DNA of 64,000 bases from Hydrogenophaga sp. SL48 (GTDB lineage Bacteria; Pseudomonadota; Gammaproteobacteria; Burkholderiales; Burkholderiaceae_C), in the NCBI RefSeq assembly GCF_021729865.1, contig NZ_CP063400.1:1364001-1428000 (forward strand), written 5' to 3'. Position numbers and translations under genes: made by a program. This document shows, piece by piece, positions 35,681-56,603 of the stretch (its first letter is position 1; each line of letters opens with the position of its first letter). Below the pieces are notes generated by a model. It worked only from the letters and a program-made list of their open reading frames with translations, did not search any database and was not told the DNA's origin.

Positions 35681-35700
35681 CGTTGGAGCCTTGGACACCC

Positions 35701-36546: not shown

Positions 36547-36595
36547 GAAACGTTTTAACGCGCAAAGTTACATGTTGTGTCAACTAAGGTGTTCA

Positions 36596-36607
36596 GTGAA
36601 TATTCAC
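36596..36607. promoter_or_regulatory. Palindrome in the region upstream of virB1
   Basis: GTGAATATTCAC is a perfect 12-bp palindrome 152 bp before virB1, in AT-rich sequence. TACAAT at 36634-36639 could serve as a -10 box (no good -35). Candidate operator/promoter of the secretion locus. An AGGAGG-like run at about 36663 has no suitable start codon after it. Confidence 0.4.
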
Positions 36608-36758
36608 GTAGCTGTTTCCACTAGTACACAAGTTACAATGCGCCGCAATAAAACAGATTTTCAGGAGGAAGCGGCCGCATCTCAGCGATCGCTCTGGTCG
36701 TCATTGCCGACACCCGTTCGGCATGCATTGAACCAGGGCTTTGTGCGTTCGCCGCGTC

Positions 36759-37871
36759 ATGGTTCTCATGCTGGAATGCCCCGATCTTTCGGTTCCCAAA
36801 GAAGTGATGCAGCACGTGGTTCACGTCGAGTCATCACGGAATCCCTTCGCTATTGGCGTTGTGGGCGGGTATCTTGCGCGCCAGCCCAAAAGCCTTGACG
36901 AAGCGCTGGCTGCGGTTCGCCAGCTGAAGGAAGAGGGCTACAACTTCTCGGTCGGCATCGCTCAGGTCAATCGCTATAACCTGGCGAAATACGGCTTGAA
37001 TACCTACGCCGATGCATTCGACGTCTGCTCCAACCTCAGAGCGGGCTCCAGAATTCTTCGCGAGTGTTACGACCGAGCCCAAGATTGGGGCAAAGCCTTC
37101 AGCTGCTACTACTCCGGAAACTTTGCCACCGGGTTTGAGCATGGCTACGTTCAAAAAATCTTTGCGTCCATGCGCAAGGTTCAGTACGGCCTTGTGTCCC
37201 AAGGGGAGCCGGTCAGGATCATTCCCTACAACAACAGTCCGCGAAAACTGGCTCGTGAAGACAACGTGCCCCTGAGCGGTGTTGGGACTGCCTCCGGTGC
37301 ATCAATTGCGCGAGTTGCTGCAACCACGGGGCAGACCACCACCTACCCTGAGCCGCATGCGATCCGCAAATACCAGCCCTCGACGCCGCTGTCCATGACC
37401 GCCGCCGCGCTGGCCAACGCTCAGGTGCCTTCAGGGCCATCGTCAAGACAGAGCGCGGGCGTCGAAACAGCCGAAAACCGCCCTGCCATACCCGTTCCTG
37501 GGCCGGGTGCTGTCATGCCGGACTCAAACAAGTCCCGATCCGATGGATTGAACGGCATCCCGACGCAAGTGGTGGGCGTCAACGGCGACCCATATCAAAC
37601 ACGCTTGCTGCCACCTGCCAGTACAGGCTTGCCCGCAGACAAGCTTCCATTGCCTGACTTGAACGCGCCCTTGTCCCCCGTTGCAGGTGGTGGGCGTAAG
37701 TCAGAGAAATTCAGTGCATCCAGCGCCGTGGCCGCTCGAAAAGGCGGCAGCTTGTTGCACTCCATCGAGTCTTCAGGGAAACCTGGAAACACTGCTGAAG
37801 GCGCGTCCGACGGCGATACACCCAGTCTGCGAGAAAGCGCAACGCCCTCGGACAGATCATTTGTGTTTTAG
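36759..37871 (+). CDS. virB1: VirB1-like lytic transglycosylase
   Basis: 370 aa. Opens peptidoglycan for assembly of the secretion channel. SLT-like domain at about 5-155 with the catalytic glutamate E24 in VMQHVVHVESSRNPFAIG, then YNFSVGIAQVNRYNLAKYGL and FSCYYSGNFATGF. After about residue 160 comes a long Pro/Ser/Ala-rich tail (over 200 residues) without recognisable fold. There is no evident signal peptide from this start, as in other VirB1 proteins of this group. Starts at 36759 or 36768 are both possible and neither has a good ribosome site. First gene of the locus. Confidence 0.88.
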   Translation: MVLMLECPDLSVPKEVMQHVVHVESSRNPFAIGVVGGYLARQPKSLDEALAAVRQLKEEGYNFSVGIAQVNRYNLAKYGLNTYADAFDVCSNLRAGSRILRECYDRAQDWGKAFSCYYSGNFATGFEHGYVQKIFASMRKVQYGLVSQGEPVRIIPYNNSPRKLAREDNVPLSGVGTASGASIARVAATTGQTTTYPEPHAIRKYQPSTPLSMTAAALANAQVPSGPSSRQSAGVETAENRPAIPVPGPGAVMPDSNKSRSDGLNGIPTQVVGVNGDPYQTRLLPPASTGLPADKLPLPDLNAPLSPVAGGGRKSEKFSASSAVAARKGGSLLHSIESSGKPGNTAEGASDGDTPSLRESATPSDRSFVF

Positions 37872-37885
37872 AAATGGAAAGAACC

Positions 37886-38254
37886 ATGAATCCTATTTTT
37901 TTGAAATCTATTGCAAGCCACTTTCGGGTGCTCATTAATGTTTTTTTGATTGCATTGTTGTTTGCCTCTGAATCGGCGAATGCAGCCGGCTTTGTTGATG
38001 CATGCAATAATGTTACCGGGTTTTTTGAAAATTTTGAAACAATACTGAAAGTTGCTTCGATTTCAATCGTTACGATCGCGATCGTGTTTGCTGGATATCA
38101 AATCGCATTTGCTCACAAACGGTTGTCCGATGTGGCTCCGATTTTGATTGGAGGTTTGTTGATTGGTGGGGCTGCCACTATTTCTGGATGGTTTGTTGCG
38201 GATTGGCAGGCTAACACTGGTGCAAACAACACGTGCGCGGTTAATACTCAGTGA
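37886..38254 (+). CDS. virB2: VirB2-like pilin subunit
   Basis: 122 aa. Major T4SS pilin. Cleavable signal (to about SANA at 35-36), then a mature part with two hydrophobic helices (FETILKVASISIVTIAIVFA and LSDVAPILIGGLLIGGAATI) joined by the short basic loop AHKR, standard for TrbC/VirB2. I chose the ATG at 37886 because GGAAAG lies in front; ATG 37874 gives four extra residues. Cys residues occur at CNN and CAV. Base composition is strongly AT-rich relative to the flanks. Confidence 0.88.
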   Translation: MNPIFLKSIASHFRVLINVFLIALLFASESANAAGFVDACNNVTGFFENFETILKVASISIVTIAIVFAGYQIAFAHKRLSDVAPILIGGLLIGGAATISGWFVADWQANTGANNTCAVNTQ

Positions 38255-38300
38255 TGATTTTAAATGGTTTTTGCCAATTTAATTAAGGTGTAAAATTGCG

Positions 38301-38621
38301 ATGAGGAAAGATGTCCTCTTTCGAGGGTGCACTCGGCCACCCATGATTCTTGGTGTGCCATACATACCTTTTTTGGTTGGTGCTGGTGGGCCATTGTTGC
38401 TTGCAATGTATATCTCTTTGTATCTGTTGCTTTTGATCCCATTTATCATTTTTGTCATGAGGATGGCTGCCAAGAGAGATGAGATGATCTTTCGTTTGAT
38501 CGGGCTTCATTTGGTTTTTAGATTTTTACCTCGAAATTCAACCAATTACGGTGGTGCTTGGGTCTTTGGTCCTGGTAAAAACTTATATAGACGGCGCAAG
38601 ATGATTGATTATATTGAATAG
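38301..38621 (+). CDS. virB3: VirB3-like inner-membrane protein
   Basis: 106 aa. N-terminal LFRGCTRPPMILGVPYIPFL is typical of VirB3, followed by a long hydrophobic stretch (about 15-55) and a basic C-terminus. VirB3 sits in the inner-membrane complex beside VirB4. Immediately upstream of virB4, the normal order. AT-rich like virB2. Confidence 0.9.
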   Translation: MRKDVLFRGCTRPPMILGVPYIPFLVGAGGPLLLAMYISLYLLLLIPFIIFVMRMAAKRDEMIFRLIGLHLVFRFLPRNSTNYGGAWVFGPGKNLYRRRKMIDYIE

Positions 38622-38668
38622 ATCTATTTGTATGGTCTGGCTGAATTTCGCTTACTGATCAATATTCA

Positions 38669-41146
38669 ATGTCACTTGTCTCTCCTGAAGCTGATTACAG
38701 CAACTTCGTCCCCTTCAGTACTCATGTGGACACCCATGTGGTGAAGTCGCGGGAAGGGGATTACATGATTACCTGGCTCTTGAGCGGTTTTCCGTTCGTG
38801 GGTCGGGAGGATTGGGAGTTGGAGCACCGGCACAAGACGTTCAACAGTCTGCTGCAAAGCTTGCGCGCGCCAGATTTTGAGAACGTCGCATTCTGGGCAC
38901 ATGACGTGCGGCGACGCCGGCCTATCAAGACCAGTGCTCATTTTCCTCATCGCTTCAGTCAGGAGCTGCACGACAGCTACATGGAGCGCTTGTCCAGCAA
39001 GCGTCTTATGCAGAATGAGTTGTACCTGACGATGATCTATCGGCCGGTGGTCAGCGGAAAACGATTTGCAGCCATCTCCAGGGACATTGAAGTTCTGCGT
39101 CGCGAGGAAAAAGCCTATCTTGAGAAAATCTATGAACTGGTTGGCAACGTAGAGGCGTTACTCCAGGACTATTCGCCGTACCGCTTGGGTCTCTATGAAA
39201 GTATCAACAAGCAGGTGTTCTCGGAAAACTTGGAGTTTTTTGGATACCTTTTGAATCATGTCGATGAGCCGGTGCCGGTGTTGCCAGCGCCGATCTACAA
39301 TTACTTGCCCACGAGCAAGCACATGTTCTCGACGGGTAGTGGTGATTTTGCAATCCGTACGGCCAACGGAGACAATTATTACGGTGCGATTCTCAATATC
39401 AAAGAATATGCAGATAGTTCTTGGCCGGGAATTTTGAATGGTCTAAAGTACTTGGAATTCGAGTACATCGTTACGCACTCGTTCACGCCCATGAGTCGAT
39501 ACGACTCAATGAAGGCTCTGGAGCGCACCAAAGGTGCGATGTTGTCGTCAGAAGACAAGGCGGTCAGCCAAATCGTGGAGCTGGATTTTGCGATGGACCA
39601 GTTGGCTTCCGGGAATTTTGTTCTGGGACAATACCATTTCAATATGGCGATTTTTGCGTCAGATCAAGAAGAACTCTACAACAATATTTCTCAGGCTCGA
39701 GCTCAGCTATCGGGCGCCAGCTTCGTGACCGTGAAGGAAGATGTGGCAATTCCCGCAGCGTTTTACGCTCAGCTGCCTTGCAACTGGCGTTTTCGCCCTC
39801 GCATTGCCAATTTGAGCTCACTTAACTTTCTTGGCTTGTGCCCGTTGCATAATTTCGCAACCGGTAAACCTAACTTTAATCCGTGGGGCTCTTCTGTCAG
39901 TATTTTGCAGACGCTGAACAATCAGGCCTATCATTTCAATTTTCATGCTACCAAGCCAAACGAGTATTCGCTTGGTGAAAAGGCGATCGCCAACACGATG
40001 GTCATCGGCAAGTCCGGCACTGGTAAGACCGCGTTGATCAATTTTCTGCTCGCGCAAGTACAGAAGATTCAGCCTGAGCCCACCATCTTTTTCTTCGACA
40101 AAGACCGTGGCGCCGAGATTTTCATCCGTGCCTGCGGAGGCCGTTATTTCACGCTGGAGAAGGGGCGCCCAACTGGGTTCAATCCGCTGCAGTGCGACAA
40201 CACGCCAGAAAACGAACAGTTCCTGGTAGAGCTGATTCAGGCGCTGTGTGGCAAAGACAAGTATTCCCCATCTGAACAGGAGGACCTGATTCGCGCCGTG
40301 CGGGCCATTCTCGACACGCCCATGCATTTGCGAACCATGACCAACCTGCAGAAGAGCTTGCCCAACACGGGCGAAAACAGCCTCTTCGAATGCATTTCGG
40401 TCTGGTGCAAGGGCGGCCCGGCAGCATGGGTGTTCGACAACCCCAAGGACAACATCGACTTTTCAGGCTCCAACATCATCGGTTTCGACTACACCGAGGT
40501 GATCGAAGATGGCAAGACCCGCGAACCCATCATCCAATACCTGTTGCATCGCATGGAGAGCCTGATCGATGGACGTCCATTTATCTATGTGATGGACGAG
40601 TTCTGGAAAGTGCTGGAGGGCAAGGGCGGTCTTAAGGACTTTGCGAAGAACAAACAGAAGACCATCCGAAAGCAAAACGGCCTGGGCATTTTTGCGACAC
40701 AAAGCCCGCAAGACGCGCTCAATAGCGACATTTCGGCATCGTTGATTGAACAAACTGCCACGTTGATCTTGCTGCCCAACCCCAACGCCGATTCCAAAGA
40801 TTACCTGGAAGGTCTCAAGCTGACGCAGGCCGAATTTGAACTGGTGGTCGGGCTGGATGAGCGCAGCCGCTGTTTTCTGGTCAAGCAAGGACACAACGCG
40901 GTGTTGTGCCAACTCAACCTCAACGGCATGGACGACGAACTCGCTGTGTTGTCTGGCTCCAGCGACAACGTGGAGATCCTGACCGAATTGCTGCGCGAGC
41001 ACCCGACACCACAGCAACCAGACACTTGGTTGACCGAGTTTCACGCGCGGCGCAAAGGGTTGCGCACGCAGCGCAAGACGGCCATGGCCAACAGCCACGA
41101 ATACCTCCGCCATGCGCCCACGGAGGTGATCGAAGGCCAAATCTGA
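38669..41146 (+). CDS. virB4: VirB4-like secretion ATPase
   Basis: 825 aa. Largest T4SS ATPase, energising pilus biogenesis and substrate passage at the inner membrane. Walker A VIGKSGTGKTALINFLL (about 449-456), Walker B FIYVMDEFWKVLE (about 637), and the late motif GLGIFATQSPQDALNSDIS. Length is typical for the family. Intact and not interrupted by the nearby IS. Confidence 0.96.
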   Translation: MSLVSPEADYSNFVPFSTHVDTHVVKSREGDYMITWLLSGFPFVGREDWELEHRHKTFNSLLQSLRAPDFENVAFWAHDVRRRRPIKTSAHFPHRFSQELHDSYMERLSSKRLMQNELYLTMIYRPVVSGKRFAAISRDIEVLRREEKAYLEKIYELVGNVEALLQDYSPYRLGLYESINKQVFSENLEFFGYLLNHVDEPVPVLPAPIYNYLPTSKHMFSTGSGDFAIRTANGDNYYGAILNIKEYADSSWPGILNGLKYLEFEYIVTHSFTPMSRYDSMKALERTKGAMLSSEDKAVSQIVELDFAMDQLASGNFVLGQYHFNMAIFASDQEELYNNISQARAQLSGASFVTVKEDVAIPAAFYAQLPCNWRFRPRIANLSSLNFLGLCPLHNFATGKPNFNPWGSSVSILQTLNNQAYHFNFHATKPNEYSLGEKAIANTMVIGKSGTGKTALINFLLAQVQKIQPEPTIFFFDKDRGAEIFIRACGGRYFTLEKGRPTGFNPLQCDNTPENEQFLVELIQALCGKDKYSPSEQEDLIRAVRAILDTPMHLRTMTNLQKSLPNTGENSLFECISVWCKGGPAAWVFDNPKDNIDFSGSNIIGFDYTEVIEDGKTREPIIQYLLHRMESLIDGRPFIYVMDEFWKVLEGKGGLKDFAKNKQKTIRKQNGLGIFATQSPQDALNSDISASLIEQTATLILLPNPNADSKDYLEGLKLTQAEFELVVGLDERSRCFLVKQGHNAVLCQLNLNGMDDELAVLSGSSDNVEILTELLREHPTPQQPDTWLTEFHARRKGLRTQRKTAMANSHEYLRHAPTEVIEGQI

Positions 41147-41199
41147 GTGGTTTTGGTGCAGAGCCTCATTGGGGCAGTGATTTATTTTTCGAGGGAGTA

Positions 41200-41619
41200 A
41201 TGATGAAAACAAAAACATGGTCCTGGCTCTTGAGCGTGGTGCTCTTGAGTTCGGTCCCTGCCAGTGCGATGGCGGCTCAGGGGCAGTCGAAATGCGGAGG
41301 TCTTGCCCCTTCTGGAACCAGTACAGGCGGCGCCGCCTTCGACGACGATCTTCCTGCCGATCAAGACGTTTTTTCTTTCTGCGCGTTCGGTTACACGCCC
41401 CACTGCTGGGTGGGCGTCAACCCGATCGCCGGCACCTGGAAAATCGCCAACAACTACTGCTTCAATCCCAAGTGGACCAGCAAGTACGAGCAGATTTGCC
41501 CAAAAGGTCTCAAGCCTGGCACCTGGAAAAGCCCGGGAAAGGACCCCTTTCAGTACAAAGGAAAGCAGGGCGCACCCGACGGGCTGGAGGAGTGCCAACA
41601 CCTGATGGAAGGCTTCTGA
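41200..41619 (+). CDS. Small secreted cysteine-rich protein of the T4SS locus
   Basis: 139 aa from the ATG at 41200 (or from 41203, better spaced from GAGGGAG). Signal peptide (WSWLLSVVLLSSVPASAMA). The mature part has six cysteines (KCGGL, SFCAFG, HCWVGV, NYCFNP, QICPKG, EECQH), suggesting disulfides in the periplasm or outside. I do not recognise the family. It sits between virB4 and the IS, with another secreted protein beyond the IS. Could be an accessory surface protein or an immunity-type protein; no function assigned. Confidence 0.75.
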   Translation: MMKTKTWSWLLSVVLLSSVPASAMAAQGQSKCGGLAPSGTSTGGAAFDDDLPADQDVFSFCAFGYTPHCWVGVNPIAGTWKIANNYCFNPKWTSKYEQICPKGLKPGTWKSPGKDPFQYKGKQGAPDGLEECQHLMEGF

Positions 41620-41685
41620 GTCGGAGGGGTTTCCATGGGTGTTCAGGCCTGCCAGCGTGAGACCACTCATTCGATACATTCATAA

Positions 41686-42861
41686 GGAAGGTCTGCAAAA
41701 CCGCGGCGCCGTGGGCCGATGTGAGACAGTGACGTCATGAAGCAAATGAGCCTGGGCGAGAGCGGATTCGAGCGCAAGACCAAGAGAACGCGCAAGCGCG
41801 AGTTCCTCGACGAGATGAACCTGGTAGTGCCGTGGACCGAGCTGGTGTCGCTGATTGCACAGCATGCACCAACGCCTGGCGCCAAGGGTGGTCGTCCGCC
41901 GTTTGCCGTGCGAACCATGCTTCGCATTCACTTCCTGCAGCAGTGGTTCAACCTGTCCGACCCGGCGATGGAGGAGGCGCTGTACGACACGCCCATGTTT
42001 CGAGAGTTTGCGGGGCTGGACCAGGGTGAGGAGAACTTGCCTGACGAGAGCACCATCCTGCGCTTTCGCCATCTGCTCGAACAACACAACTTGAGCCTGC
42101 AATTGCTTGCCACGGTCAACGCCACCCTGGCCGACAAAGGCCTGCTGCTCAAGAGCGGTACGGTCGTCGACGCCACGCTCATTGCCGCCCCCAGCTCGAC
42201 CAAGAACAACAGCGGCGAACGCGACCCCGAGATGCATCAGACCAAGAAGGGCAACCAGTGGCACTTCGGGATGAAAGCGCATATTGGGGTCGATGCCGAA
42301 TCGGGCCTGGTGCACACCGTCAAGGCCACAGCGGCCAACGCGCACGACATCACCCAGGCCAGCGAACTGCTGCACGGCGACGAAACCGATGTCTTTGCCG
42401 ACTCTGGCTACCGGGGCGTTCACAAGCGCGATGAGGTGATCAAGGACCATCCCGAGGTCCACTGGTACGTGGCCATGATGCCCAGCCATCGCAAGGCGCT
42501 GGACAAGGAAACGCCCATGGGCTCGATCATGGAAGCGCTGGAGAAAACCAAGGCGCGCATCCGAGCCAAGGTCGAACACCCGTTCCGGGTGATCAAGCGC
42601 CAGTTCGGATATGTGAAGGTGCGCTACCGGGGATTGGCCAAGAACACGGCGCAGCTGCACACCCTGTTTGCGTTGTCCAACATCTGGATGGTGCGCCGAA
42701 CGCTTTTGAAGGAGACCCGAGGATGAGTGCGTCCGAATGCGGCCAACGGCCACGAATCAGGGCGAAATCGGCCAACAAAGCGCCCTCGTGAGCCTGAAAT
42801 CGCCATCATTTGAAATTGCATGCATCACCTCGCGCCGTAGCGGGTGTTGTGCAGACCTTCC
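41686..42861 (+). mobile_element. Intact IS5-family insertion sequence (1176 bp)
   Basis: Terminal inverted repeats GGAAGGTCTGCA (41686-41697) and TGCAGACCTTCC (42850-42861), flanked by ATAA on both sides (41682-41685 and 42862-42865), a 4-bp target duplication typical of the IS5 group. Contains one transposase gene. Removing it joins CATTC with ATAAGAAATC, so no gene was broken. Confidence 0.93.
41737..42726 (+). CDS. IS5-family transposase
   Basis: 329 aa, full length. DDE catalytic residues fall in SGTVVDATLIAAPSS (D), TDVFADSGYRGVHKR (D) and IRAKVEHPFRVIKRQFGYVK (E, with the Y-x2-R-x3-E-x6-K-like signature). N-terminal part carries the usual DUF772-type helix-turn-helix (GRPPFAVRTMLRIHFLQQW). 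Intact, so the element may be active. Confidence 0.96.
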   Translation: MKQMSLGESGFERKTKRTRKREFLDEMNLVVPWTELVSLIAQHAPTPGAKGGRPPFAVRTMLRIHFLQQWFNLSDPAMEEALYDTPMFREFAGLDQGEENLPDESTILRFRHLLEQHNLSLQLLATVNATLADKGLLLKSGTVVDATLIAAPSSTKNNSGERDPEMHQTKKGNQWHFGMKAHIGVDAESGLVHTVKATAANAHDITQASELLHGDETDVFADSGYRGVHKRDEVIKDHPEVHWYVAMMPSHRKALDKETPMGSIMEALEKTKARIRAKVEHPFRVIKRQFGYVKVRYRGLAKNTAQLHTLFALSNIWMVRRTLLKETRG

Positions 42862-42882
42862 ATAAGAAATCAAGGAGGAATT

Positions 42883-43446: not shown

Positions 43447-43475
43447 GAAAAGAGCCGCGCCTGCGAAGACTTACA

Positions 43476-43654: not shown

Positions 43655-44020
43655 ATGACACACATCCCCAAAGACCCCCTGATTTTGTTGAGCCGCCGGC
43701 GACTGCTCGGGCGTTTGGCGCTGGGCGGTTCGGCCGCTTTGGCGTTGGCGGCTTGTGGGGGCGGGGGCGGTGGTGACGATTCGGAGGGCATTGATCTTCG
43801 GGCTGCTTATGACAGGGTTGTTGAAGGCATGACCAGAGCACAAGTCGTCCGCGCGGTCGGAAGAGACCCCAATTCGGTCAGCTCCGATGAGACGTTGTAT
43901 TGGAGTGAAAATGGTCAGCAGCTCGAAGTTGATATTTTTGAGCCGACCGGACTTACGTATTATGTGCGTTGGGACAGTCTGGTGGTCCCATACGGAAATT
44001 TAAGAAAAGACTTCTTCTGA
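43655..44020 (+). CDS. Lipoprotein with twin-arginine-like leader
   Basis: 121 aa. Leader SRRRLLGRLALGGSAALALAAC combines consecutive arginines with a lipobox (LAAC), so Tat export of a lipoprotein is possible. After a glycine run, AAYDRVVEGMTRAQVVRAVG and QLEVDIFEPTGLTYYVRWD resemble the small BamE/SmpA-like outer-membrane lipoprotein fold. It lies just before virB5. Ribosome site AGGA. It could be an outer-membrane factor of the apparatus or an immunity protein. Low certainty of role. Confidence 0.7.
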   Translation: MTHIPKDPLILLSRRRLLGRLALGGSAALALAACGGGGGGDDSEGIDLRAAYDRVVEGMTRAQVVRAVGRDPNSVSSDETLYWSENGQQLEVDIFEPTGLTYYVRWDSLVVPYGNLRKDFF

Positions 44021-44048
44021 AACTTGCCTTAGCTCACTTTTGGGGAAT

Positions 44049-44735
44049 ATGGTGATTAAGTATTTGATGGCACTTTTTGTATTCTTAGCTCCGAGTTTTG
44101 TGATGGCGCAATGGGCTGTATACGACCAAAAAGTATACGAAGAACTGACGAAAATTAATAACATCACTTCACTTGGACGTAACGATAATCTCGGTGGTGA
44201 TTTTCGAGGGGCCATCTCCAGCTCATCCTCGGGCCAAGATGTCACCTTGGGTACGGGTTCCAATCAGGCAGTCTTGAAAGGGCTGGACACCAAGTTTGAA
44301 ACCATTACGGTGGACAACCCGGAAAAGTACATTGGTACTGAGCAAGATTGTGGTTCTAATTCCGCACAATTCCTCAAGCATTACAACGCCTGTGCCGGGC
44401 TGAGAAACCTGCGCCTACAAACCCTCAAGCAAAGCCAAGACATGCTTAAGGTATTGAATAAAAGGCGTGAACAAATCGTGAACTTGGTGACTGCGTCCCG
44501 TGGTGTCAGTGACAAATCAGGCCAAATGCAGCGCTATCACTTTGAACTGCAAGCCCAACAATCGTTGTTGCAAACCGACGCGATGCAGTTGCAGGTGTTG
44601 ATGGATGGTTACAAGCAGCGGGAAAAGACCTACGAAATGCAAATGGTCGAGGCCAAGCGCGAGCGCGACACGGGTCGGTTCGATGCTGGCAAAGGCGCGT
44701 TGCGCAAGCCTGCTGTGCCGTTTTTGGTGAACTGA
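44049..44735 (+). CDS. virB5: VirB5-like pilus-tip protein
   Basis: 228 aa. Signal peptide (to about SFVMAQ), then a mostly helical protein with AVYDQKVYEELTKINNI at the N-terminus and the long C-terminal helices QMQRYHFELQAQQSLLQ and EKTYEMQMVEAKRERDTGRF. Position immediately before virB6 and the helical design identify it as the VirB5 minor pilin, though sequence conservation in this family is low. Two cysteines (DCGS, NACAG) may form a disulfide. Confidence 0.8.
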   Translation: MVIKYLMALFVFLAPSFVMAQWAVYDQKVYEELTKINNITSLGRNDNLGGDFRGAISSSSSGQDVTLGTGSNQAVLKGLDTKFETITVDNPEKYIGTEQDCGSNSAQFLKHYNACAGLRNLRLQTLKQSQDMLKVLNKRREQIVNLVTASRGVSDKSGQMQRYHFELQAQQSLLQTDAMQLQVLMDGYKQREKTYEMQMVEAKRERDTGRFDAGKGALRKPAVPFLVN

Positions 44736-46891: not shown

Positions 46892-46948
46892 GGGGGCGGT
46901 TGAGATCAGGTTTTGCGGGTGTGGATCAACAAGGTTTTCAGGGCTGAT

Positions 46949-48650: not shown

Positions 48651-49735
48651 GCTTGCAATTTCCCAACGCCAACGGTGGCGGCCAAGGCCCCGTGCTGTCC
48701 GACAACATGCCCAAGCTGTCTGCGGGTCTGACCCGCGGGGTCAACAAGACTGCTGTGGCTTACATCGTCCTGGTGTCGCTCGCGACCATCGGCATGACGC
48801 TGTGGGTGGCGAGCAATGCGTTTTCGGCCGATGACGACAAGAAGAAGCAGGTCACTTACGAAGAAGTGACTGTTCCCGAAAAGCCGTTGCTCAAGCTGCC
48901 GCCGCCTGAGCTAGATGCAGAGGTGGTGGCCAAGGCCAACGTGCCGCCGATGCCGCCCGCCATGCCAATGGGCGAAGGCGCCGCGCCGGTCAAGGACGAT
49001 CTGATGCAGCGGCGCATGGCCAGCGAAAACAACCTGGTGGCTGCGTCTGAAAAAGGCAAGAAAAATCCGCTCTTTGAAGACGAGTTTTCGTCGGTGAAAC
49101 GCGGGGCTGTGGAGGCCCTCGCCAACGCCGACTTCACGCTCACGCGCGGTACCTTCATTCGCTGTTCGCTGGAGACCAAGGTCGTGTCGACGCTGGCGGG
49201 CATGACCTCTTGTATCGTGACCGAGCCGATCTATTCCGTGAACGGGAGTCGTTTGCTGATCGACAAGGGTTCCAAGGTCACTGGTGAGTACAAGTACGCC
49301 GATGAAAATTACGACCGTGTGGGCATCATCTGGACCCGCGTGTTGACGACGACGGGGCTGGACGTCCGGATCGACAGCGCGGGAACCGATGCGCTGGGTG
49401 GCGCCGGCGTTCCAGGCGAATACAACGGCCATTGGGGCGAGCGGATCGGTTCGGCCCTGTTGGTGAGCTTGCTGGCGGACGGTATCGATGCTGGCGCGCA
49501 GAAGTTCGCCAATGAAAATGACATTCGCGGACGCCAGACCACGACCTATGCGGGCGGTGCCATCCAAGAGCGCGTTGATCCCTGGGAGTCTGCGACGGCC
49601 AGCACGGCCAAGAAGGCCGCCAACGACATGCTCGCCCGCTCGGCCAACCGCAAGGCGACGGTGACGGTGCTCAACGGCACGGTGGTCAACATTTTCGCGG
49701 CGCGCGACGTCGATTTTTCCAGCGTGATGCGTTGA
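48647..49735 (+). CDS. virB10: VirB10-like envelope-spanning channel protein
   Basis: 362 aa. Cytoplasmic N-terminus, one membrane helix (about 37-57), a proline-rich periplasmic region (EKPLLKLPPPELDAE, PPMPPAMPMG), and the C-terminal TrbI-like beta-barrel domain (FTLTRGTFIRCSLETKVVST, LIDKGSKVTGEY, GGAGVPGEYNGHWGERIG) that forms the outer-membrane cap with its antenna helices. GAGGAGG ribosome site inside virB9. Confidence 0.95.
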   Translation: MSLQFPNANGGGQGPVLSDNMPKLSAGLTRGVNKTAVAYIVLVSLATIGMTLWVASNAFSADDDKKKQVTYEEVTVPEKPLLKLPPPELDAEVVAKANVPPMPPAMPMGEGAAPVKDDLMQRRMASENNLVAASEKGKKNPLFEDEFSSVKRGAVEALANADFTLTRGTFIRCSLETKVVSTLAGMTSCIVTEPIYSVNGSRLLIDKGSKVTGEYKYADENYDRVGIIWTRVLTTTGLDVRIDSAGTDALGGAGVPGEYNGHWGERIGSALLVSLLADGIDAGAQKFANENDIRGRQTTTYAGGAIQERVDPWESATASTAKKAANDMLARSANRKATVTVLNGTVVNIFAARDVDFSSVMR

Positions 49736-49754
49736 TCGCAGTGGCCTTCATGTC

Positions 49755-50804
49755 ATGACGGTGCAGACCAACGACGAACCCATTGCGAACATATCAACGG
49801 AGTTTCTGGAGTACCAGTACCACGTGCTGGGGATCACGAACTTCCTGAGCGATCCCCGCGTCACGGAGATTTGCATCAACCGCCCGGGGGAGGTGTTCCT
49901 GGAAACAGTGGCAGGCTGGGAGCGCATCGATGTGCCTAGCCTGACCTTTGACCGGGCGCGGCAGTTTTGCACCACGGTGGTCAACGAAAGCAAGACCGGA
50001 CAGCGCATCACGCAGGTCGATCCCGTGGTGTCGCTCACCTTTCCCACCGGGCAACGTGCCCAGTTCGTGTTGCCTCCCGCCGTGCCAGCCGACCACGTGT
50101 CGATCACGATCCGCTTGCCTTCGCGCTACACCAAGACGCTGAACCAGTACCAGGACGACGGCTTTTTCGCGCAGATTCTGGAAGAGGACGGCAGCATCAG
50201 CGCCATGGACGAGGAATTGCTGGCCTTGAAACGTGCACGGGACTTTCATGGCTTTTTCAGCAAAGCGGTGCACTACAAGAAGAACATTGTGGTGTCCGGC
50301 GCCACTGGCAGCGGCAAGACCACGTTCATGAAGTCGCTGGTGACGCACATCCCGGACGACGAGCGGCTGATCACCATCGAAGACGCGCGCGAGCTGTTCA
50401 TTGAGCAGCCCAACCGGGTGCACCTGATCTATTCGCGCGGTGGGCAGGGCACGGCGAACGTCACCGCCAAAGGCTGCATGGAGGCCTGCCTGCGCATGAA
50501 GCCCGACCGCATCATCCTCGCGGAAATCCGGGGTGACGAGTCGTTCTATTACATCCGAAACTGCGCTTCGGGCCACCCGGGTTCCATCACCAGTTGCCAC
50601 GCTGGCAGCACCAGCCAGACTTGGGACCAGATGGCGTTGATGGTCAAGGCCTCCCCCGAGGGCTCGGGGCTGGCGTTCGGCGAGATCAAGCGGCTGCTGA
50701 TGCTGACCATCGACGTGGTGGTGCACATCAAAGCCCACGCAGGGCAGCGCTACATCACCGGCATCGACTTCGACCCCCAGCGCAAGCTGGCTCTGGACGC
50801 GTGA
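49755..50804 (+). CDS. virB11: VirB11-like secretion ATPase
   Basis: 349 aa hexameric traffic ATPase on the cytoplasmic face. N-terminal domain, Walker A GATGSGKTTF (about 183-190), Asp box ITIEDARELF, Walker B MKPDRIILAEIRGDE, His box SGHPGSITSCHAGS. Last of the continuous structural block; the cargo genes follow immediately. Confidence 0.96.
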   Translation: MTVQTNDEPIANISTEFLEYQYHVLGITNFLSDPRVTEICINRPGEVFLETVAGWERIDVPSLTFDRARQFCTTVVNESKTGQRITQVDPVVSLTFPTGQRAQFVLPPAVPADHVSITIRLPSRYTKTLNQYQDDGFFAQILEEDGSISAMDEELLALKRARDFHGFFSKAVHYKKNIVVSGATGSGKTTFMKSLVTHIPDDERLITIEDARELFIEQPNRVHLIYSRGGQGTANVTAKGCMEACLRMKPDRIILAEIRGDESFYYIRNCASGHPGSITSCHAGSTSQTWDQMALMVKASPEGSGLAFGEIKRLLMLTIDVVVHIKAHAGQRYITGIDFDPQRKLALDA

Positions 50805-50809
50805 CAACC

Positions 50810-51274
50810 ATGATCAACACCTCTTTTCTTTTCAAGGCGCTGAGCGCCGCTTCGCTGTGTGTGGCATCCATGCTGGTCCACGCAGCAACCCCAATTCCGG
50901 GTTTGACGCCTGTGGACATACGCGGCCTGTGGTTCCCGAAGTCGGAAGCTGGCTCAGCCAAGTGTGCGAATTACCTGGGACGGCAACCGGTGGAACCCGA
51001 TGTAGGCGCGCTGGTCATCAACGAGCGCCAGATGGTGCGATGGGTGCAGCCTGGTCAGAGCGCCACGATTTTCGTGACCGACGTTCAACCGCGCCGCCGC
51101 AACACTTGGCGCATCCAGGGCCTGCTTGATGCACCGCCCTACGAGGCACCGAAGGTTTTGGAGACCTATGTGTTTGAGGTGCGGCAAGACGACCTGCACT
51201 GGTCGAGCCGACGGGAAGGAGCTCGGCTGAGCGAAAGGGTGGAAACCTCCGTGTTTGCGCGATGCGGTTATTGA
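50810..51274 (+). CDS. Periplasmic protein of unknown function in the T4SS cargo block
   Basis: 154 aa starting 5 bp after virB11. Signal peptide (LFKALSAASLCVASMLVHAA), then a small beta-rich domain: IRGLWFPKSEAGSAKCANYLG, NERQMVRWVQPGQSATIFVT, TYVFEVRQDDLHWSSRREG, ending in RCGY; the two mature cysteines could pair. No family recognised. Exported and placed upstream of the lipoprotein and lipase genes, it may be an immunity protein or a periplasmic accessory protein. Confidence 0.72.
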   Translation: MINTSFLFKALSAASLCVASMLVHAATPIPGLTPVDIRGLWFPKSEAGSAKCANYLGRQPVEPDVGALVINERQMVRWVQPGQSATIFVTDVQPRRRNTWRIQGLLDAPPYEAPKVLETYVFEVRQDDLHWSSRREGARLSERVETSVFARCGY

Positions 51275-51344
51275 ACGCGCGCCGACCTCTTCAAACCCTT
51301 CTTTTGGCAGCCATTGGTGCTGCATTTTCCTGAAAGGTGACCTG

Positions 51345-51863
51345 ATGCGAACTCGCCGGATTTTTGTTGGCGTTTTGATGACCCTGGCATTGGCCTCGGC
51401 GTGTGCGACCAAGGTGGCGGAGCCTTGGCACAAGTTCGCTTTTGATGGCTGGAATGACAAGTGGTATCCGGCTCATGAATTGCTGGAGTACAGCTACGGA
51501 GATAAGTACCGGATGGTTCGGGCGAGTGTCATCACGCCCGATCAACCTATTCACGAGAGCAAGAGCCAATTGCCTCCTGGTACCAACATCAACGGACCGA
51601 TGCCCGTCGGAGAGTTCTTGTTCGTCAAATGGCGCATCAAGGCGACGGATGAAGTGGTCGAGGATCGGGTGGATCTGCGTCAACGTCTACCCAAGGACAT
51701 GAAAGACCATGGTCTGACATTTGTGATTGAAGGCAAGCAGCTCTATGTGTATGTGGTCACGCCCAAGGTCCTGAACAGCGACTTGCCACCCAACAAGAAG
51801 ACCAGTTCGTCTAGGTACAGGGAAACATTTGAAATCTATCCCACCAACGAACTGTCCAGATAA
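51345..51863 (+). CDS. Lipoprotein, candidate immunity protein for the adjacent lipase
   Basis: 172 aa. Signal with lipobox ALASAC (C20). The mature domain contains FDGWNDKWYPAHELLEYSYG, INGPMPVGEFLFVKWRIKAT and FVIEGKQLYVYVVTPK. From memory, proteins with this DGWxDKW...YGDxYxMVR pattern sit beside DUF2235-type lipase genes in type VI secretion loci as presumed immunity proteins; I could not verify this. It ends 21 bp before the lipase gene. An exported lipoprotein fits protection against an effector delivered into the periplasm. Confidence 0.75.
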   Translation: MRTRRIFVGVLMTLALASACATKVAEPWHKFAFDGWNDKWYPAHELLEYSYGDKYRMVRASVITPDQPIHESKSQLPPGTNINGPMPVGEFLFVKWRIKATDEVVEDRVDLRQRLPKDMKDHGLTFVIEGKQLYVYVVTPKVLNSDLPPNKKTSSSRYRETFEIYPTNELSR

Positions 51864-51884
51864 ACCGGAACAAGAGACCCGGAC

Positions 51885-53546: not shown

Positions 53547-53600
53547 GGCGGTTGGGCGCTGCCGTGACCACCACATGAAACACATGAAAAGGGATGACCG

Positions 53601-54557
53601 ATGAAGAGCAAAAGACTGGGTGTGTTGTTGCTGACCGCCTCGCTGGCCGCGTGTGGGCAACTGCCCATCGATTTCTTTCAGCCGCAACGCGACGGCCTGG
53701 AGACCCTCTCTCAGCAGATCGGTCCCGATGCAGGCAGCTTGAATTTTGATTTTGAGTTCGACGACAAGGCCGATGCGACGGCGGGCGAGGTCGGTTCGGG
53801 CTACATCGTGGTGAGCCGAGGAGGCAAGGAGTTGCAGGCCCTGCCGCACGCCTTTGAGATGCCTCGAAGCCGGTTGGACCGGCAAGCCTGGCTGCACTTC
53901 AAGGATTTCAACGGCGACGGGCTGCTGGACTTCAAGGTCACGCGCCTGTTTGCCATGGACGGCAAACTGCCAGTGGACAGCCTGTACCAGTTCGATGCCA
54001 AGACAGGCACCTTTGCCCAGGTGGATGTCGTGTCCAATGCCGGCGAGATCGAGGCGACCGCACCAGGTTGTGTGTCGTTGAAGTTGGTCAATGCCGCCGG
54101 CCATGCCAAGCAGGAAGGCCACTGTTTTGTGCCCGCCGCTGCACGCTGGGTTCGGGCCAAGCCGGAGGTGGCGAAAAAAGGAGTCGCGGCGGTGCGTGTC
54201 GAAGCGGTCTGCGACCCGCAGACGCCGGAGTTGATCGGCTGTCGTCGCGCGCGCATCGAGCAAGACCGTGTCCTGCTGACGATGGTGCGTGAGTACCGCA
54301 TGGGCAAGAAGCAGGCCCTGATCGGCCTGCAAGGCAAGGCCTATGCCGAGACCTACGCCAGAATGCAGGACTTGGACCACCAGAGCTGGCAGCGTTATCG
54401 GGACGCCCGCTGCGCCTCTCAGTCGCGCGAGCAGGCGGTGGCTGTCAAGGCATTGCCTGCCGCGATCGAGCTGTGTCGCCACGACTGGTCTCGCGATCAG
54501 TTGCGCCGCTACAAAGAGCAGGTGGCGCGTTTGGGTGAGGGGAAAGGCAAGCCATGA
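53601..54557 (+). CDS. Lipoprotein with calcium-type loop and LprI-like C-terminus, candidate immunity protein
   Basis: 318 aa. Lipobox SLAAC (C18). The N-terminal half has FKDFNGDGLLDFKVTRL, a DxNxDGxxD calcium-binding loop as in VCBS/EF-hand-like repeats. The C-terminal part (about 197-310) has CDPQTPELIGCRRARIEQD, HQSWQRYRDARC and IELCRHDWSRDQLRRYKEQ, which resembles the LprI/DUF1311 lysozyme-inhibitor-like domain. X. citri carries a lipoprotein immunity protein (XAC2610) also described as calcium-binding and lysozyme-inhibitor-like (from memory). It overlaps virD4 by 4 bp (ATGA), so it is part of the secretion operon. Confidence 0.75.
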   Translation: MKSKRLGVLLLTASLAACGQLPIDFFQPQRDGLETLSQQIGPDAGSLNFDFEFDDKADATAGEVGSGYIVVSRGGKELQALPHAFEMPRSRLDRQAWLHFKDFNGDGLLDFKVTRLFAMDGKLPVDSLYQFDAKTGTFAQVDVVSNAGEIEATAPGCVSLKLVNAAGHAKQEGHCFVPAAARWVRAKPEVAKKGVAAVRVEAVCDPQTPELIGCRRARIEQDRVLLTMVREYRMGKKQALIGLQGKAYAETYARMQDLDHQSWQRYRDARCASQSREQAVAVKALPAAIELCRHDWSRDQLRRYKEQVARLGEGKGKP

Positions 54558-56482
54558 GGCAAGCCAAGCTGCTGTTGTTTCTGGCGTTGCTGGCGGCAGT
54601 CCTGTTCGCTGGTCTGTACCTGAGTGGTCTGGTGCTGTTCTGGCGGCTGGACATGCCCTGGTCGCGCATGCAGTGGCTGGACTACCTGCGCTATTGGTTG
54701 GCCTATTCGGATGTACCCGCCCACGCCGGGGTGATCAAGAGCAGCGGGTTGATCGGTTTTGCGGTGCCATTGCTCATGCTGGTCGCGCTGACCGCTCTGG
54801 TGTTGTTCCGAAAAAAGCCCAACCTGTATGGCGAGGCCCGCTTCGCGACCACGGGTGACCTGCGCGAGCGCAAGATGCTCAAGCCCGACGACACGGCGCT
54901 GGTGGTGGGCAAGAAGGACGGCCAGTTCGTGTACTTCAACGGCCAGCAGTTTGCCCTTCTGGCCGCGCCCACCCGCTCGGGCAAGGGCGTGGGCATCGTG
55001 GTTCCCAACCTGTTGAGCTACCAGGGCTCGGTGGTGGTACTCGACATCAAGCAGGAGAACTTTGACCTCACCAGCGGTTTTCGCGCCCGCTACGGGCAGC
55101 ATGTCTACCTCTTCAATCCGTTTGCCGAAGACCGGCGCACCCACCGCTGGAACCCGCTGTCCTATGTGTCGCGGGACGAACATTTCCGCATCAGCGATGT
55201 GCAGAGCATCGCCGCCATGCTGTACCCGGCCTCGGAGCTGCACAAGGACCCGTTCTGGGCCAACCAGGCGCAGAACGCCTTTGTCGCCTTCGCGCTCTAC
55301 GCCTTCGAGCAGGCGGCCTACCTCGCTGAACAGTTTGACGTCCCCTACGACGCGCCCACCATCGGTGGCCTGTACCGCCTGGCGTCGGGGCGACCGGGGC
55401 AGGAGATCAAGACCTACCTGACCGAGCTGGCGGCCTGGCCGCACCTGAGCCCGAGCGCGCGCACGGCGTTCGCCACGTTGCTGGGGCAGGCCAACGAGAC
55501 CTTTGCCAGCATCATGGGCACCTTCAAGGAGCCGCTGAACCCCTGGCTCAACCCGGTGGTGGATGCAGCCACCAGCGGCAACGACTTCGATTTGCGGGAC
55601 GTGCGCCGCAAGAAGATGAGCATCTACGTGGTGATCCAGCCCAACAAGCTGGCGGAGAGCCGCCTGATCCTCAACCTCTTCTTCAGCCAGCTGATCAACC
55701 AGAACACCCGCGAGCTGCCTCAGGCCAACCCCGAGCTCAAGCACCAGTGCCTGTTGCTCATGGACGAGTTCACCAGCATCGGGCGGGTCGACATCATCGC
55801 CAGCGCGGTCAGCTTCATGGCGGGCTACAACCTGCGCCTGATGCCCATCATCCAGAGCATGGCGCAGCTGGAGTCGACCTACGGCAAGGAAACCGCGCGC
55901 ACCATCATGACCAACCACGCGCTGCGCATCATCTTCGCGCCGCGCGAGCAGCAGGACGCCAACGAATACAGCGAGATGCTGGGCTATACCGCCATGCGCA
56001 AGGACAGCGTGAGCCGCAGCCGTTCGCGCGAGAGCAGCTACACCCGCAGCGAGAGCGACGAGCGCCGTGCGCTCATGCTGCCTCAGGAACTCAAGGCCAT
56101 GGGTGACGAGAAGCAGATCCTGCTGGTCGAAGGCATGGCGCACCCGGTGATGGGCGAGAAGATCCGCTACTTCAAAGAGTCGACGTTCAAGGAGCGCCTG
56201 CTGCCGAAGGTGGAGGTGCCGATGCTGGTCTTGCCGGGCAGCCTTCCCACGAGCACCACTGCCCCGGCGCAGGTGCCCATGGCCCGCGAAGCCGTGGTGC
56301 TGGATGCACCGCCCGTGGTTCACCGGAGCGTCGAGTCCTCGCTGGCTCAGCAATACGAGGCGCACCGTCAGCGCACCCCCGAAGCGCCTCAGGAGTACAC
56401 CGGTCTGGCGGGCATCGGCCAGGAGGTGGATGAGGTGATGCGTGGCCTGGCCAGCCTGTCGTTTGAAACAGTTGCTCGCTGA
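54554..56482 (+). CDS. virD4: VirD4-like coupling ATPase
   Basis: 642 aa. Recruits substrates to the channel. Two N-terminal membrane helices (about 6-30 and 58-84), Walker A APTRSGKGVGIVVPNLL (about 138-145), VVVLDIKQENFDLTSGFR, Walker B CLLLMDEFTSIG (about 400), NHALRIIFAPREQQDA. Full length and intact; C-terminal tail Ala/Pro/Glu-rich. In the X-T4SS the all-alpha domain of VirD4 binds the effector C-terminal domain. Coupled by 4-bp overlap to the upstream lipoprotein gene. Confidence 0.95.
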   Translation: MRQAKLLLFLALLAAVLFAGLYLSGLVLFWRLDMPWSRMQWLDYLRYWLAYSDVPAHAGVIKSSGLIGFAVPLLMLVALTALVLFRKKPNLYGEARFATTGDLRERKMLKPDDTALVVGKKDGQFVYFNGQQFALLAAPTRSGKGVGIVVPNLLSYQGSVVVLDIKQENFDLTSGFRARYGQHVYLFNPFAEDRRTHRWNPLSYVSRDEHFRISDVQSIAAMLYPASELHKDPFWANQAQNAFVAFALYAFEQAAYLAEQFDVPYDAPTIGGLYRLASGRPGQEIKTYLTELAAWPHLSPSARTAFATLLGQANETFASIMGTFKEPLNPWLNPVVDAATSGNDFDLRDVRRKKMSIYVVIQPNKLAESRLILNLFFSQLINQNTRELPQANPELKHQCLLLMDEFTSIGRVDIIASAVSFMAGYNLRLMPIIQSMAQLESTYGKETARTIMTNHALRIIFAPREQQDANEYSEMLGYTAMRKDSVSRSRSRESSYTRSESDERRALMLPQELKAMGDEKQILLVEGMAHPVMGEKIRYFKESTFKERLLPKVEVPMLVLPGSLPTSTTAPAQVPMAREAVVLDAPPVVHRSVESSLAQQYEAHRQRTPEAPQEYTGLAGIGQEVDEVMRGLASLSFETVAR

Positions 56483-56528
56483 AGGCTTCGCTGGCTTTGG
56501 GGGTGTCAGGCGGTCGCCGGCGCGGCCC

Positions 56529-56534
56529 TAAAAT
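56529..56534 (+). promoter_or_regulatory. Possible -10 box for glmM
   Basis: TAAAAT 70 bp upstream of glmM, in the 121-bp gap after virD4; the -35 region is poor. A separate promoter is expected because folP is now 20 kb away. Confidence 0.3.
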
Positions 56535-56603
56535 GGTGCCCGAGGCTGCGTCCGGTCGGACCAGCCTTCACCACGGGCCGGGCCCGTCCATCTTTTTCCC
56601 TCT

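What the first reader, a model, noticed from the sequence alone, without database searches (positions are those of the whole stretch)
36547..56603. An antibacterial-type (X-T4SS-like) secretion locus splits the folP-glmM pair
rlmE-ftsH-folP-glmM is a widely conserved order; here 20 kb with a full virB1-virB11 plus virD4 set lies between folP and glmM, all on one strand. No relaxase, integrase, partition or replication gene is present, so DNA transfer is unlikely. A long VirB7 and a lipase/lipoprotein cargo block point to protein delivery into rival bacteria. The insertion point, gene order (cargo between virB11 and virD4) and effector class differ from what I recall for Xanthomonas.
Basis: partly seen in the sequence, partly recalled or inferred. 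Interest (0 to 1): 0.9.

Follow-up and report, generated by a model that had tools for sequence, protein, structure and literature searches.

The report
Bacteria-killing secretion system with swappable parts
This is a type IV secretion system that most likely injects toxins into rival bacteria; the kind is known, but here the genes for its tip and inner-channel proteins look exchangeable and also sit in separate islands beside toxin genes.

Summary
A complete virB1-virB11/virD4 set fills the 20,057 bp between folP and glmM, with no relaxase among its genes. It is a chromosomal X-T4SS: VirB7 carries an N0 domain and matches X. citri VirB7, VirB4 groups with Xanthomonadales systems and not with plasmid systems, and the genome encodes XVIPCD effectors. 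The genus is Hydrogenophaga, where X-T4SSs were listed in print in 2019. The folP-glmM site is the usual one: 11 of 13 assessable carriers have the system there, and 35 of 36 assessable non-carriers have the pair adjacent.

The new part lies inside. VirB5 and VirB6 distances covary (r=0.84-0.88) but hardly follow the core, and the VirB6 and core trees reject each other. Eight virB6 copies in six genomes lie off-locus, the window's own genome included (4.51 Mb). Seven of these islands carry a gene with an effector-type C-terminus; the eighth is cut by a contig end. Three genomes show no virB5/virB6 beside the core. The cargo lipase (orfF) lacks a detectable XVIPCD; its C-terminal domain, on several unlike N-termini, occurs in 18 of 18 carriers and 3 of 49 non-carriers. 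What the module does is inferred.

The parts
35683..36546 (+). folP, left flank
   Evidence: adjacent to glmM (12-123 bp) in 35 of 36 assessable non-carriers of the genus
36741..37871 (+). virB1, lytic transglycosylase (start codon uncertain)
   Evidence: PF01464 E=1.3e-9
37874..38254 (+). virB2 pilin
   Evidence: PF04956 E=1e-14
38301..38621 (+). virB3
   Evidence: PF05101 E=1.2e-20
38669..41146 (+). virB4 ATPase, the only VirB4 match in this genome at E<=0.001
   Evidence: PF03135 E=5e-47; single genome match; tree
41200..41619 (+). orfA, small secreted protein beside virB4
   Evidence: no Pfam or NCBIfam family; extracted in 13 of 18 carriers; weak homologues in a few Dyella, Stenotrophomonas and Pseudoxanthomonas loci
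41686..42861 (+). IS element with DDE transposase (41737-42726), inverted ends GGAAGGTCTGCA, ATAA on both sides
   Evidence: PF01609 E=9e-34; second copy in L089
42883..43446 (+). orfB, secreted protein of the variable module
   Evidence: no family; extracted in 7 of 18 carriers
43655..44020 (+). orfC, small lipoprotein paired with virB5
   Evidence: within 400 bases upstream of 27 of 27 assessable virB5 genes (fragments of broken genes merged; 2 more virB5 are cut by contig ends); alignment A9
44049..44735 (+). virB5, predicted pilus-tip protein, part of the exchangeable module
   Evidence: profile A1 E=2e-96, of which it is a member; PF07996 only weak; distances covary with VirB6
44791..46422 (+). 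virB6, inner-membrane channel protein, part of the exchangeable module
   Evidence: PF04610 E=4e-19; tree conflicts with the core
46460..46891 (+). virB7 lipoprotein with C-terminal N0 domain, 143 aa
   Evidence: PF10671 E=4e-7; best PDB match X. citri VirB7 6gyb, E=1.7e-18
46913..47845 (+). virB8 with 58-aa C-terminal extension, 53% A/Q/G/P
   Evidence: PF04335 E=6e-42; composition
47895..48650 (+). virB9
   Evidence: PF03524 E=6.5e-45
48647..49735 (+). virB10
   Evidence: PF03743 E=6e-42; best PDB match VirB10 of 6gyb, E=1e-60
49755..50804 (+). virB11 ATPase
   Evidence: PF00437 E=4e-26
50810..51274 (+). orfD, secreted protein, near-constant part of the locus
   Evidence: extracted in 15 of 18 carriers
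51345..51863 (+). orfE, lipoprotein, candidate immunity protein for orfF
   Evidence: same 6 of 18 carriers' main-locus stretches as orfF, and next to orfF in L147, L149, L155 and L156
51885..53546 (+). orfF, Tle1-like lipase effector candidate with a C-terminal domain (profiles A5/A8) that is not a detectable XVIPCD
   Evidence: PF09994 E=2e-9, over cut-off; A5 profile
53601..54557 (+). orfG, lipoprotein before virD4, weakly XAC2610-like
   Evidence: NF047539 24.8 bits, below its cut-off of 35; tblastn match in 17 of 17 other carriers
54554..56482 (+). virD4 coupling protein
   Evidence: PF02534 E=5e-116
56604..57938 (+). glmM, right flank

Best explanation
The locus is a chromosomal X-T4SS of Hydrogenophaga that most likely injects toxins into neighbouring bacteria. 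Shown by comparison: the full machine, its X-T4SS clade, XVIPCD effectors elsewhere in the genome, no relaxase, and a genus-typical home between folP and glmM. Also shown: virB5 and virB6, with the small lipoprotein gene orfC ahead of virB5, behave as a unit exchanged independently of the core, and copies lie elsewhere in the chromosome beside effector-type genes. Inferred: VirB5 is the tip that docks on VirB6, so swapping the pair changes which neighbours are engaged or which cargo passes, while VirB4, VirB7-VirB11 and VirD4 stay constant. OrfF is probably a phospholipase delivered by the machine and OrfE its immunity lipoprotein; orfF's shared C-terminal domain is probably a second recognition signal.
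For: System. Site. Module: VirB5-VirB6 Mantel r=0.84 over 14 pairs and 0.88 over 10 main-locus pairs (p=1e-4 each); VirB5-core r=0.12 (p=0.20) and VirB6-core r=0.26 (p=0.047). AU tests p=3.9e-7 and 4.5e-5. G299 and G318: core 97% identical, VirB5 42%, VirB6 30%. Profile A2 (VirB6, E<=1e-20) hits 17 of 18 carriers and 0 of 49 non-carriers; 8 off-locus copies in 6 genomes. The own genome has one VirB4 but two VirB5-VirB6 pairs. Seven of eight islands hold a protein with an XVIPCD (3, genus profile A6) or an orfF-type C-terminus (4, profile A8). Effector domain A5: 18 of 18 carriers, 12 of 12 if the 6 genomes used to build it are left out, and 3 of 49 others, on several unlike N-termini. VirB5 docking on VirB6: a model given in PMC12857230 (passages).
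Against: No killing assay for this genus was found in what I read. OrfF has no detectable XVIPCD. The VirB7 motif reads QEIPL, where the review gives [T/S]EIPL. PF20410 co-occurrence is imperfect: 3 carriers (G208, G299, G300) lack a hit at E<=0.01 and 3 non-carriers have one. VirB5 varies in T4SSs generally, and other genes of the locus are also loosely conserved: mean identity is 58% for VirB2, 54% for orfA, 50% for orfD and 49% for orfG, against 46% for VirB5 and 41% for VirB6. No structure could be predicted.
Confidence: 0.85

Rival explanations
1. The orphan virB5-virB6 pairs are silent leftovers of recombination, and the variation is only weak constraint on fast-evolving surface proteins.
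For: Broken virB5 copies lie beside intact ones in G302 and G334, and a truncated one in G304. Truncated virB6 copies occur in Xanthomonadales and extra or truncated copies were reported before (PMC3826837, PMC10432156, passages).
Against: In G208, G313 and G321 the only virB5-virB6 genes found are the off-locus ones. The eight off-locus VirB6 frames are 538-588 aa, like the 532-607 aa of main-locus ones. No VirB6 match in 49 non-carriers. VirB5 and VirB6 change together.
Confidence: 0.22
2. The module sorts cargo: each VirB6 variant passes the effectors encoded with it, rather than choosing prey.
For: Seven of eight orphan islands carry a gene with an XVIPCD or an orfF-type C-terminus and the eighth is cut by a contig end. 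The same orfF family occurs in islands of G208, G313 and G311 and in the window.
Against: VirB5, the predicted tip, changes with VirB6. Recognition of cargo is attributed to VirD4 (PMC6536674 passage), which is fairly conserved here (75% mean identity). Genomes with one VirB6 hold three to six orfF-type proteins, for example G317 and G334.
Confidence: 0.25
3. The module is a self-recognition device: orfC acts like an exclusion lipoprotein that stops sister cells with the same VirB5-VirB6 from being attacked.
For: orfC is a lipoprotein upstream of 27 of 27 assessable virB5 genes and is duplicated with it. Conjugative plasmids keep exclusion lipoproteins near virB5-virB6 homologues (recalled, no call). 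In some Xanthomonadales loci a DUF4189 gene follows full or partial virB6 copies (two such proteins confirmed by Pfam).
Against: orfC has only a weak match to an inhibitor fold (BLIP, E=0.004, below cut-off). X-T4SS carriers already have effector-specific immunity proteins.
Confidence: 0.13
4. A conjugative system or the remnant of an integrative conjugative element.
For: Full VirB/VirD4 set, low GC, insertion between housekeeping genes.
Against: No relaxase or integrase among 20 genes; VirB4 apart from 10 plasmid rows at support 99. The plasmid VirB4 rows listed are at most 42.9% identical, and all 5,000 counted records are under 60%, against 63-66% for the 71 non-Hydrogenophaga loci kept. 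XVIPCD effectors are present.
Confidence: 0.03
5. A protein-injection system aimed at eukaryotes.
For: Lipases can also act on eukaryotic membranes (general knowledge).
Against: Effector genes lie near lipoprotein genes that look like periplasmic immunity; one joins GH19 and XVIPCD, as described for S. maltophilia TfcB (abstract of PMC11253643); the clade is X-T4SS.
Confidence: 0.05

Closest known systems
X-T4SS of Xanthomonas citri and Stenotrophomonas maltophilia (Sgro 2019, PMC6536674)
   Same: Chromosomal; twelve subunits; N0-domain VirB7; VirB8 with A/Q/G/P-rich tail; XVIPCD effectors with lipoprotein partners
   Different: Gene order is virB1-B6 then virB7-B11 then virD4, where most of the 71 other named loci have virB7-B11 then virB1-B6; folP-glmM site; orfA-orfG; the cargo lipase has another C-terminal domain; full virB5-virB6 pairs off-locus
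X-T4SS listed for Hydrogenophaga crassostreae LPB0072 and others (PMC6536674, Table 1 passage)
   Same: Same genus and kind; that table lists PHCC01000002.1, the contig of locus L159
   Different: The passages and sections read do not mention the folP-glmM site, orphan virB5-virB6 pairs or the orfF-type domain; 'glmM' has no occurrence in the text
Bartonella Trw system (PMC2883598, passages)
   Same: trwJ (virB5 homologue) amplified together with trwI and trwH and diversified more than the core; linked to host-specific binding
   Different: Tandem copies inside one locus, no VirD4 homologue, an adhesion role; here separate islands with effector genes and a virD4-bearing system
Orphan VgrG islands of T6SS (recalled, no call)
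   Same: Tip component plus effector and immunity genes away from the core locus
   Different: Unrelated machine; here tip plus inner-membrane channel protein
Tandem virB5 in Lysobacter and extra or truncated virB6 copies in Xanthomonas (PMC6536674, PMC3826837, PMC10432156)
   Same: Extra copies of the same two genes
   Different: Reported in the passages read as tandem virB5, or as virB6 copies or fragments, not as full off-locus virB5-virB6 pairs with cargo. PMC3826837 does note putative virB5 and virB6 on a plasmid and reads them as remnants of a plasmid system

Membership tests
X-T4SS | Located in the chromosome | tested here: met
   Single 5.43 Mb contig, window at 1.36-1.43 Mb
X-T4SS | VirB7 with C-terminal N0 domain | tested here: met
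   PF10671 E=4e-7; X. citri VirB7 6gyb E=1.7e-18; preceding motif QEIPL, not [T/S]EIPL
X-T4SS | All twelve class A subunits | tested here: met
   VirB5 only by weak Pfam match, alignment with other VirB5 and position
X-T4SS | Genome carries effectors with C-terminal XVIPCD | tested here: met
   PF20410 over cut-off at 4,647,249 and 2,788,374; a third, GH19-linked, below cut-off
X-T4SS | VirB8 with A/Q/G/P-rich C-terminal extension | tested here: met
   58 aa, 53% AQGP, counted from the end of the Pfam match; the review gives 53 aa and 45% for H. crassostreae
X-T4SS | VirB4 groups with X-T4SS | tested here: met
   89 X-type rows apart from 10 plasmid rows, support 99 (quick method, long plasmid branches)
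X-T4SS | Kills other bacteria on contact | not testable with these tools
   Needs a competition assay
Conjugative T4SS / ICE | Relaxase or integrase in the element | tested here: not met
   None among 20 of 20 genes; antisense ORFs and the rest of the genome not scanned
X-Tfe (XVIPCD effector) for orfF | C-terminal XVIPCD | tested here: not met
   No PF20410 match; profile comparison probability 0.2%
Tle1-like phospholipase for orfF | PF09994 catalytic domain | tested here: met
   37.6 bits, cut-off 27; activity not tested
XAC2610-type immunity protein for orfG | NF047539 over its curated cut-off | tested here: not met
   24.8 against 35 bits
Bartonella Trw-like variable virB5-virB6 set | virB5-virB6 homologues multiplied and diversified beyond the core | tested here: met
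   this is a likeness in evolution, not membership

The most novel reading that the evidence does not exclude
Bacteria-killing T4SSs have a fixed core and interchangeable specificity cassettes: orfC-virB5-virB6, carried with effector and immunity genes in orphan islands much as VgrG islands serve T6SS. One cell keeps two or more cassettes for a single core and so has more than one prey range or cargo set. A related pattern, virB6 copies away from the core, extends to Lysobacter, Luteibacter, Dyella, Stenotrophomonas and Xanthomonas. A second C-terminal effector signal, unrelated by profile to XVIPCD, feeds the Hydrogenophaga machine.
Probability: 0.4. Interest if true: 0.85.

Novelty: new variant of a known kind. 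Interest (0 to 1): 0.6.

Why it matters
What decides which cell a bacteria-killing T4SS attacks is open; the 2019 review only suggests VirB5. Natural genomes with one core and two VirB5-VirB6 pairs make the question testable by gene removal. If orphan pairs are used, gene counts at the main locus mislead: G208 and G313 would look broken there but need not be. The orfF-type domain would enlarge the effector catalogue: profile A5 (E<=0.001) lists 73 matches in 67 genomes, against 32 for PF20410 (E<=0.01). PF20410 also missed or underscored XVIPCDs that the genus profile finds in island lipases of G208, G313 and G321.

Tried and rejected
1) XVIPCD in orfF: Pfam and two profile comparisons gave nothing. 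By eye the domain looks like a diverged XVIPCD, but that is not a test. Weak matches of domain A8 to BurrH repeats in the PDB (26 positions) and to Gmad1 in Pfam (4 of 17 members, best E=0.0013) were not taken as homology. orfF had no PDB match up to E=1.

2) Conjugative origin: rejected.

3) orfD-orfG as one cargo block: rejected. orfD and orfG are near constant; only orfE-orfF moves.

4) Two Luteibacter second copies (L253, L257) lie in further complete or near-complete X-T4SSs and were not counted as orphans. My note listed L200 among loci with a partial virB6; that copy is only cut by the locus edge and belongs to the system in L257.

5) Flanking repeats at the own-genome island: none convincing; no integrase recognised by eye (no family scan of the flanks).

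6) Structure prediction for orfF, orfC and domain A8: never ran. The empty site of the island beside minC was not tested. VirB10 and VirD4 trees with references were not built. The folP-glmM order outside the genus was not measured.

7) Dropped rows: only 50 of 71 eligible named genomes were searched. In one search the topology tests used 13 genomes holding both core and main-locus VirB6. In one search, 14 virB5-virB6 pairs were used of those held. Searches used profiles built from carriers, so those members match by construction; searches scored only part of the first-look candidates in many genomes. One search kept the best 80 loci of a capped list. Fisher tests treat related genomes as independent. 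One search's E-values are for 11 proteins.
Full report
Observation. The stretch between folP (ends 36546) and glmM (starts 56604) holds a complete set of virB1 to virB11 plus virD4, all on the + strand. Pfam names eleven of the twelve subunits over the curated cut-off; VirB5 is weak there but aligns with the other VirB5 proteins collected here. None of the 20 genes scanned is a relaxase, integrase, partition or replication gene. GC drops to 47% within the locus. It disrupts no gene and has a 99.7% identical copy directly upstream of another effector gene.

What it is. VirB7 is 143 aa with an N0 (TcpQ) domain, and its best solved relative is VirB7 of 6gyb, the X. citri core complex. VirB10's best is VirB10 of the same entry. 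VirB4 is 63-66% identical to those of the 71 non-Hydrogenophaga loci kept, which come from genera the review lists for X-T4SS, their family members, Leeia and Hydromonas (a capped list). The plasmid VirB4 rows listed are at most 42.9% identical, and all 5,000 plasmid records counted are under 60%. In a tree of 99 rows, 15 Hydrogenophaga rows, 71 named X-set rows and 3 further family rows lie apart from 10 plasmid rows with support 99. The quick method was used, and plasmid rows have long branches. VirB8 has a 58-residue tail with 53% Ala, Gln, Gly and Pro. The genome encodes XVIPCD proteins over the PF20410 cut-off at two places and a weaker GH19-XVIPCD protein at a third; lipoprotein-like genes lie next to the first two and, across the IS copy, near the third. 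The four criteria that Sgro et al. 2019 used (PMC6536674; outline with abstract, passages and sections 9 and 10 read) are met. The review already lists Hydrogenophaga, including the contig of L159. The system is therefore a new member of a known kind.

The site. In the genus, 18 of 67 genomes have the VirB10 (E<=1e-40). folP and glmM lie on one contig in 49 genomes. Of 13 carriers, 11 have 13.0-27.9 kb between the two genes, G321 has 4,950 bp and G304 has 107 bp. Of 36 non-carriers, 35 have 12-123 bp. The exception, G355, has a 29.4 kb insert resembling a Tad-type pilus cluster (my reading of the ORFs) plus a relict virB1 beside folP, a footprint of a lost system. G304 keeps its system elsewhere. 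G321 keeps virB1 and virB4, with virB2 and virB3 between, at the site, virB7-virD4 about 210 kb away and virB5-virB6 at 3.57 Mb. Four carriers (G314, G317, G353, G354) have the two genes on different contigs; in all four the virB7-virD4 part lies upstream of glmM. In G317 and G354 folP is not to the left of virB1 in the stretch read. None of the 71 other named loci shows folP or glmM in the held stretch.

The exchangeable module. Mean identity within the genus is 90% for VirB4, 88% for VirB11 and 75-78% for VirB9, VirB10 and VirD4, but 46% for VirB5, 41% for VirB6 and 33% for orfC; orfD (50%), orfG (49%) and VirB2 (58%) are also loose. G299 and G318 have cores 97% identical, yet VirB5 is 42% and VirB6 30% identical. 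VirB5 and VirB6 distances rise together (Mantel r=0.84 over 14 pairs, 0.88 over 10 main-locus pairs, p=1e-4 each), while VirB5 does not follow the core (r=0.12, p=0.20) and VirB6 barely does (r=0.26, p=0.047). The VirB6 data reject the core topology (AU p=3.9e-7) and the core data reject the VirB6 topology (p=4.5e-5) over 13 genomes. orfC lies within 400 bases upstream of every virB5 that can be assessed, 27 of 27 (fragments of broken genes merged; two more sit at contig ends).

Orphan islands. VirB6 profile A2 finds 17 of the 18 carriers and none of the 49 non-carriers at E<=1e-20; the missing carrier, G300, is fragmentary (81% complete). Eight copies in six genomes are away from virB4-virB7: one each in G000, G321, G280 and G311, two each in G208 and G313. 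In the window's own genome the island at about 4.51-4.52 Mb is orfC-virB5-virB6-small gene-692-aa protein, and that protein's C-terminus resembles orfF's. The genome has only one VirB4 match, so no second T4SS explains the extra pair. G208 and G313 show no virB5 or virB6 beside the core but two different pairs elsewhere (VirB6 28% and VirB5 41% identical to each other in G313). Seven of the eight islands include a protein with an effector-type C-terminus: XVIPCD by the genus profile A6 in G208 (C6), G313 (1.03 Mb) and G321, and the orfF-type domain in G000, G208 (C15), G313 (4.59 Mb) and G311; a VirB4 control gave no match. The eighth ends with its contig. Broken virB5 copies beside intact ones in G302 and G334 look like leftovers of turnover.

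Wider reach. In 50 named X-T4SS genomes searched (of 71 eligible), all 50 have a match to the Xanthomonadales VirB6 profile. Stretches fetched around second full-length matches show virB6 without virB4 or virB7-virB11 recognised in view at eight places in six genomes: three in Lysobacter antibioticus 13-6, one each in Lysobacter sp. cf310, Luteibacter rhizovicinus, Xanthomonas sp. F10, Dyella sp. SG609 and Stenotrophomonas koreensis (in Xanthomonas sp. F10 virB6 is known only). A virB5 match lies beside it at four of the eight (L249, L250, L251, L254). Of the lipase-like proteins beside three of them, one (L250) has an XVIPCD by profile A6 and two (L252, L254) do not. A second T4SS further away than the stretch cannot be excluded there. 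Two Luteibacter copies belong to second systems.

Cargo. orfE and orfF occur in the same 6 of 18 carriers' main-locus stretches and side by side in four further loci, L147, L149, L155 and L156, which fits an effector and its immunity lipoprotein. orfF has a Tle1-like lipase domain. Its C-terminal domain is not recognisable as XVIPCD. A profile of it (A5) hits 18 of 18 carriers and 3 of 49 non-carriers (Fisher p=1.4e-13, genomes not independent); six carriers supplied its seven rows, and without them it is 12 of 12. PF20410 hits 15 of 18 and 3 of 49 (p=1.6e-9). The domain sits on Tle1-like lipases, other GHSLGG lipases, long glycine-rich proteins and further types (by eye). This is how a secretion signal would be distributed, but it is not proof.

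How it may work. A 2025 review describes a model in which a VirB5 pentamer docks on a VirB6 pentamer to start the pilus (PMC12857230, passages), so the two must fit each other. That explains their joint exchange. In Bartonella Trw the homologous genes were amplified together and the variable tip gene is a candidate for host-specific binding (PMC2883598, passages). The likeliest reading is that Hydrogenophaga swaps tip and channel base to change which neighbours are engaged, or which toxins pass, while keeping the core. This step is inferred.

Novelty. Searches of the held library turned up tandem virB5 in two Lysobacter (PMC6536674, section 9), truncated virB6 copies in X. citri 306 and X. fuscans and a putative plasmid virB5-virB6 (PMC3826837, passages) and four virB6 copies in the incomplete X. 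euvesicatoria cluster (PMC10432156, passages). PMC10933484, PMC9062649, PMC10989847 and PMC11253643 were also looked at by passages only. In these I saw no description of off-locus virB5-virB6 pairs with effectors in X-T4SS. Most subscription papers and all bioRxiv preprints are not covered.

Noticed in passing
L178, L192, L216, L174, L181, L169, L191, L201, L224, L232, L172, L223 (Xanthomonadales X-T4SS loci): 3'-partial copies of virB6 with different tails near the full gene; in L178 and L192 they are interleaved with small secreted-protein genes, one of which (L178) is DUF4189 by Pfam. They look like displaced virB6-tail plus partner units and may hint at a recognition pair. L192 also has a second full virB6.
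   Followed up: partly
L117-L118 (G355 folP-glmM gap): A Tad-like pilus cluster occupies the same site beside a truncated X-T4SS virB1: one system replaced by another at the same chromosomal place.
   Followed up: partly
L253 and L257 (Luteibacter): A second X-T4SS gene set in one genome; in L257 the two sets follow each other.
   Followed up: no
L126 (G353) and A5 matches just upstream of glmM in G280, G305, G334, G354: In several relatives further effector-like genes with XVIPCD or orfF-type C-termini fill the gap between virD4 and glmM.
   Followed up: partly
L089:3473-4662 and window 41686-42861: The same IS lies directly upstream of the GH19-XVIPCD effector and inside the T4SS locus of the window's genome.
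   Followed up: partly
L156 (G349): A genome without the VirB10 keeps orfE-orfF-orfC-virB5 on a short contig: a relict or an assembly gap.
   Followed up: no
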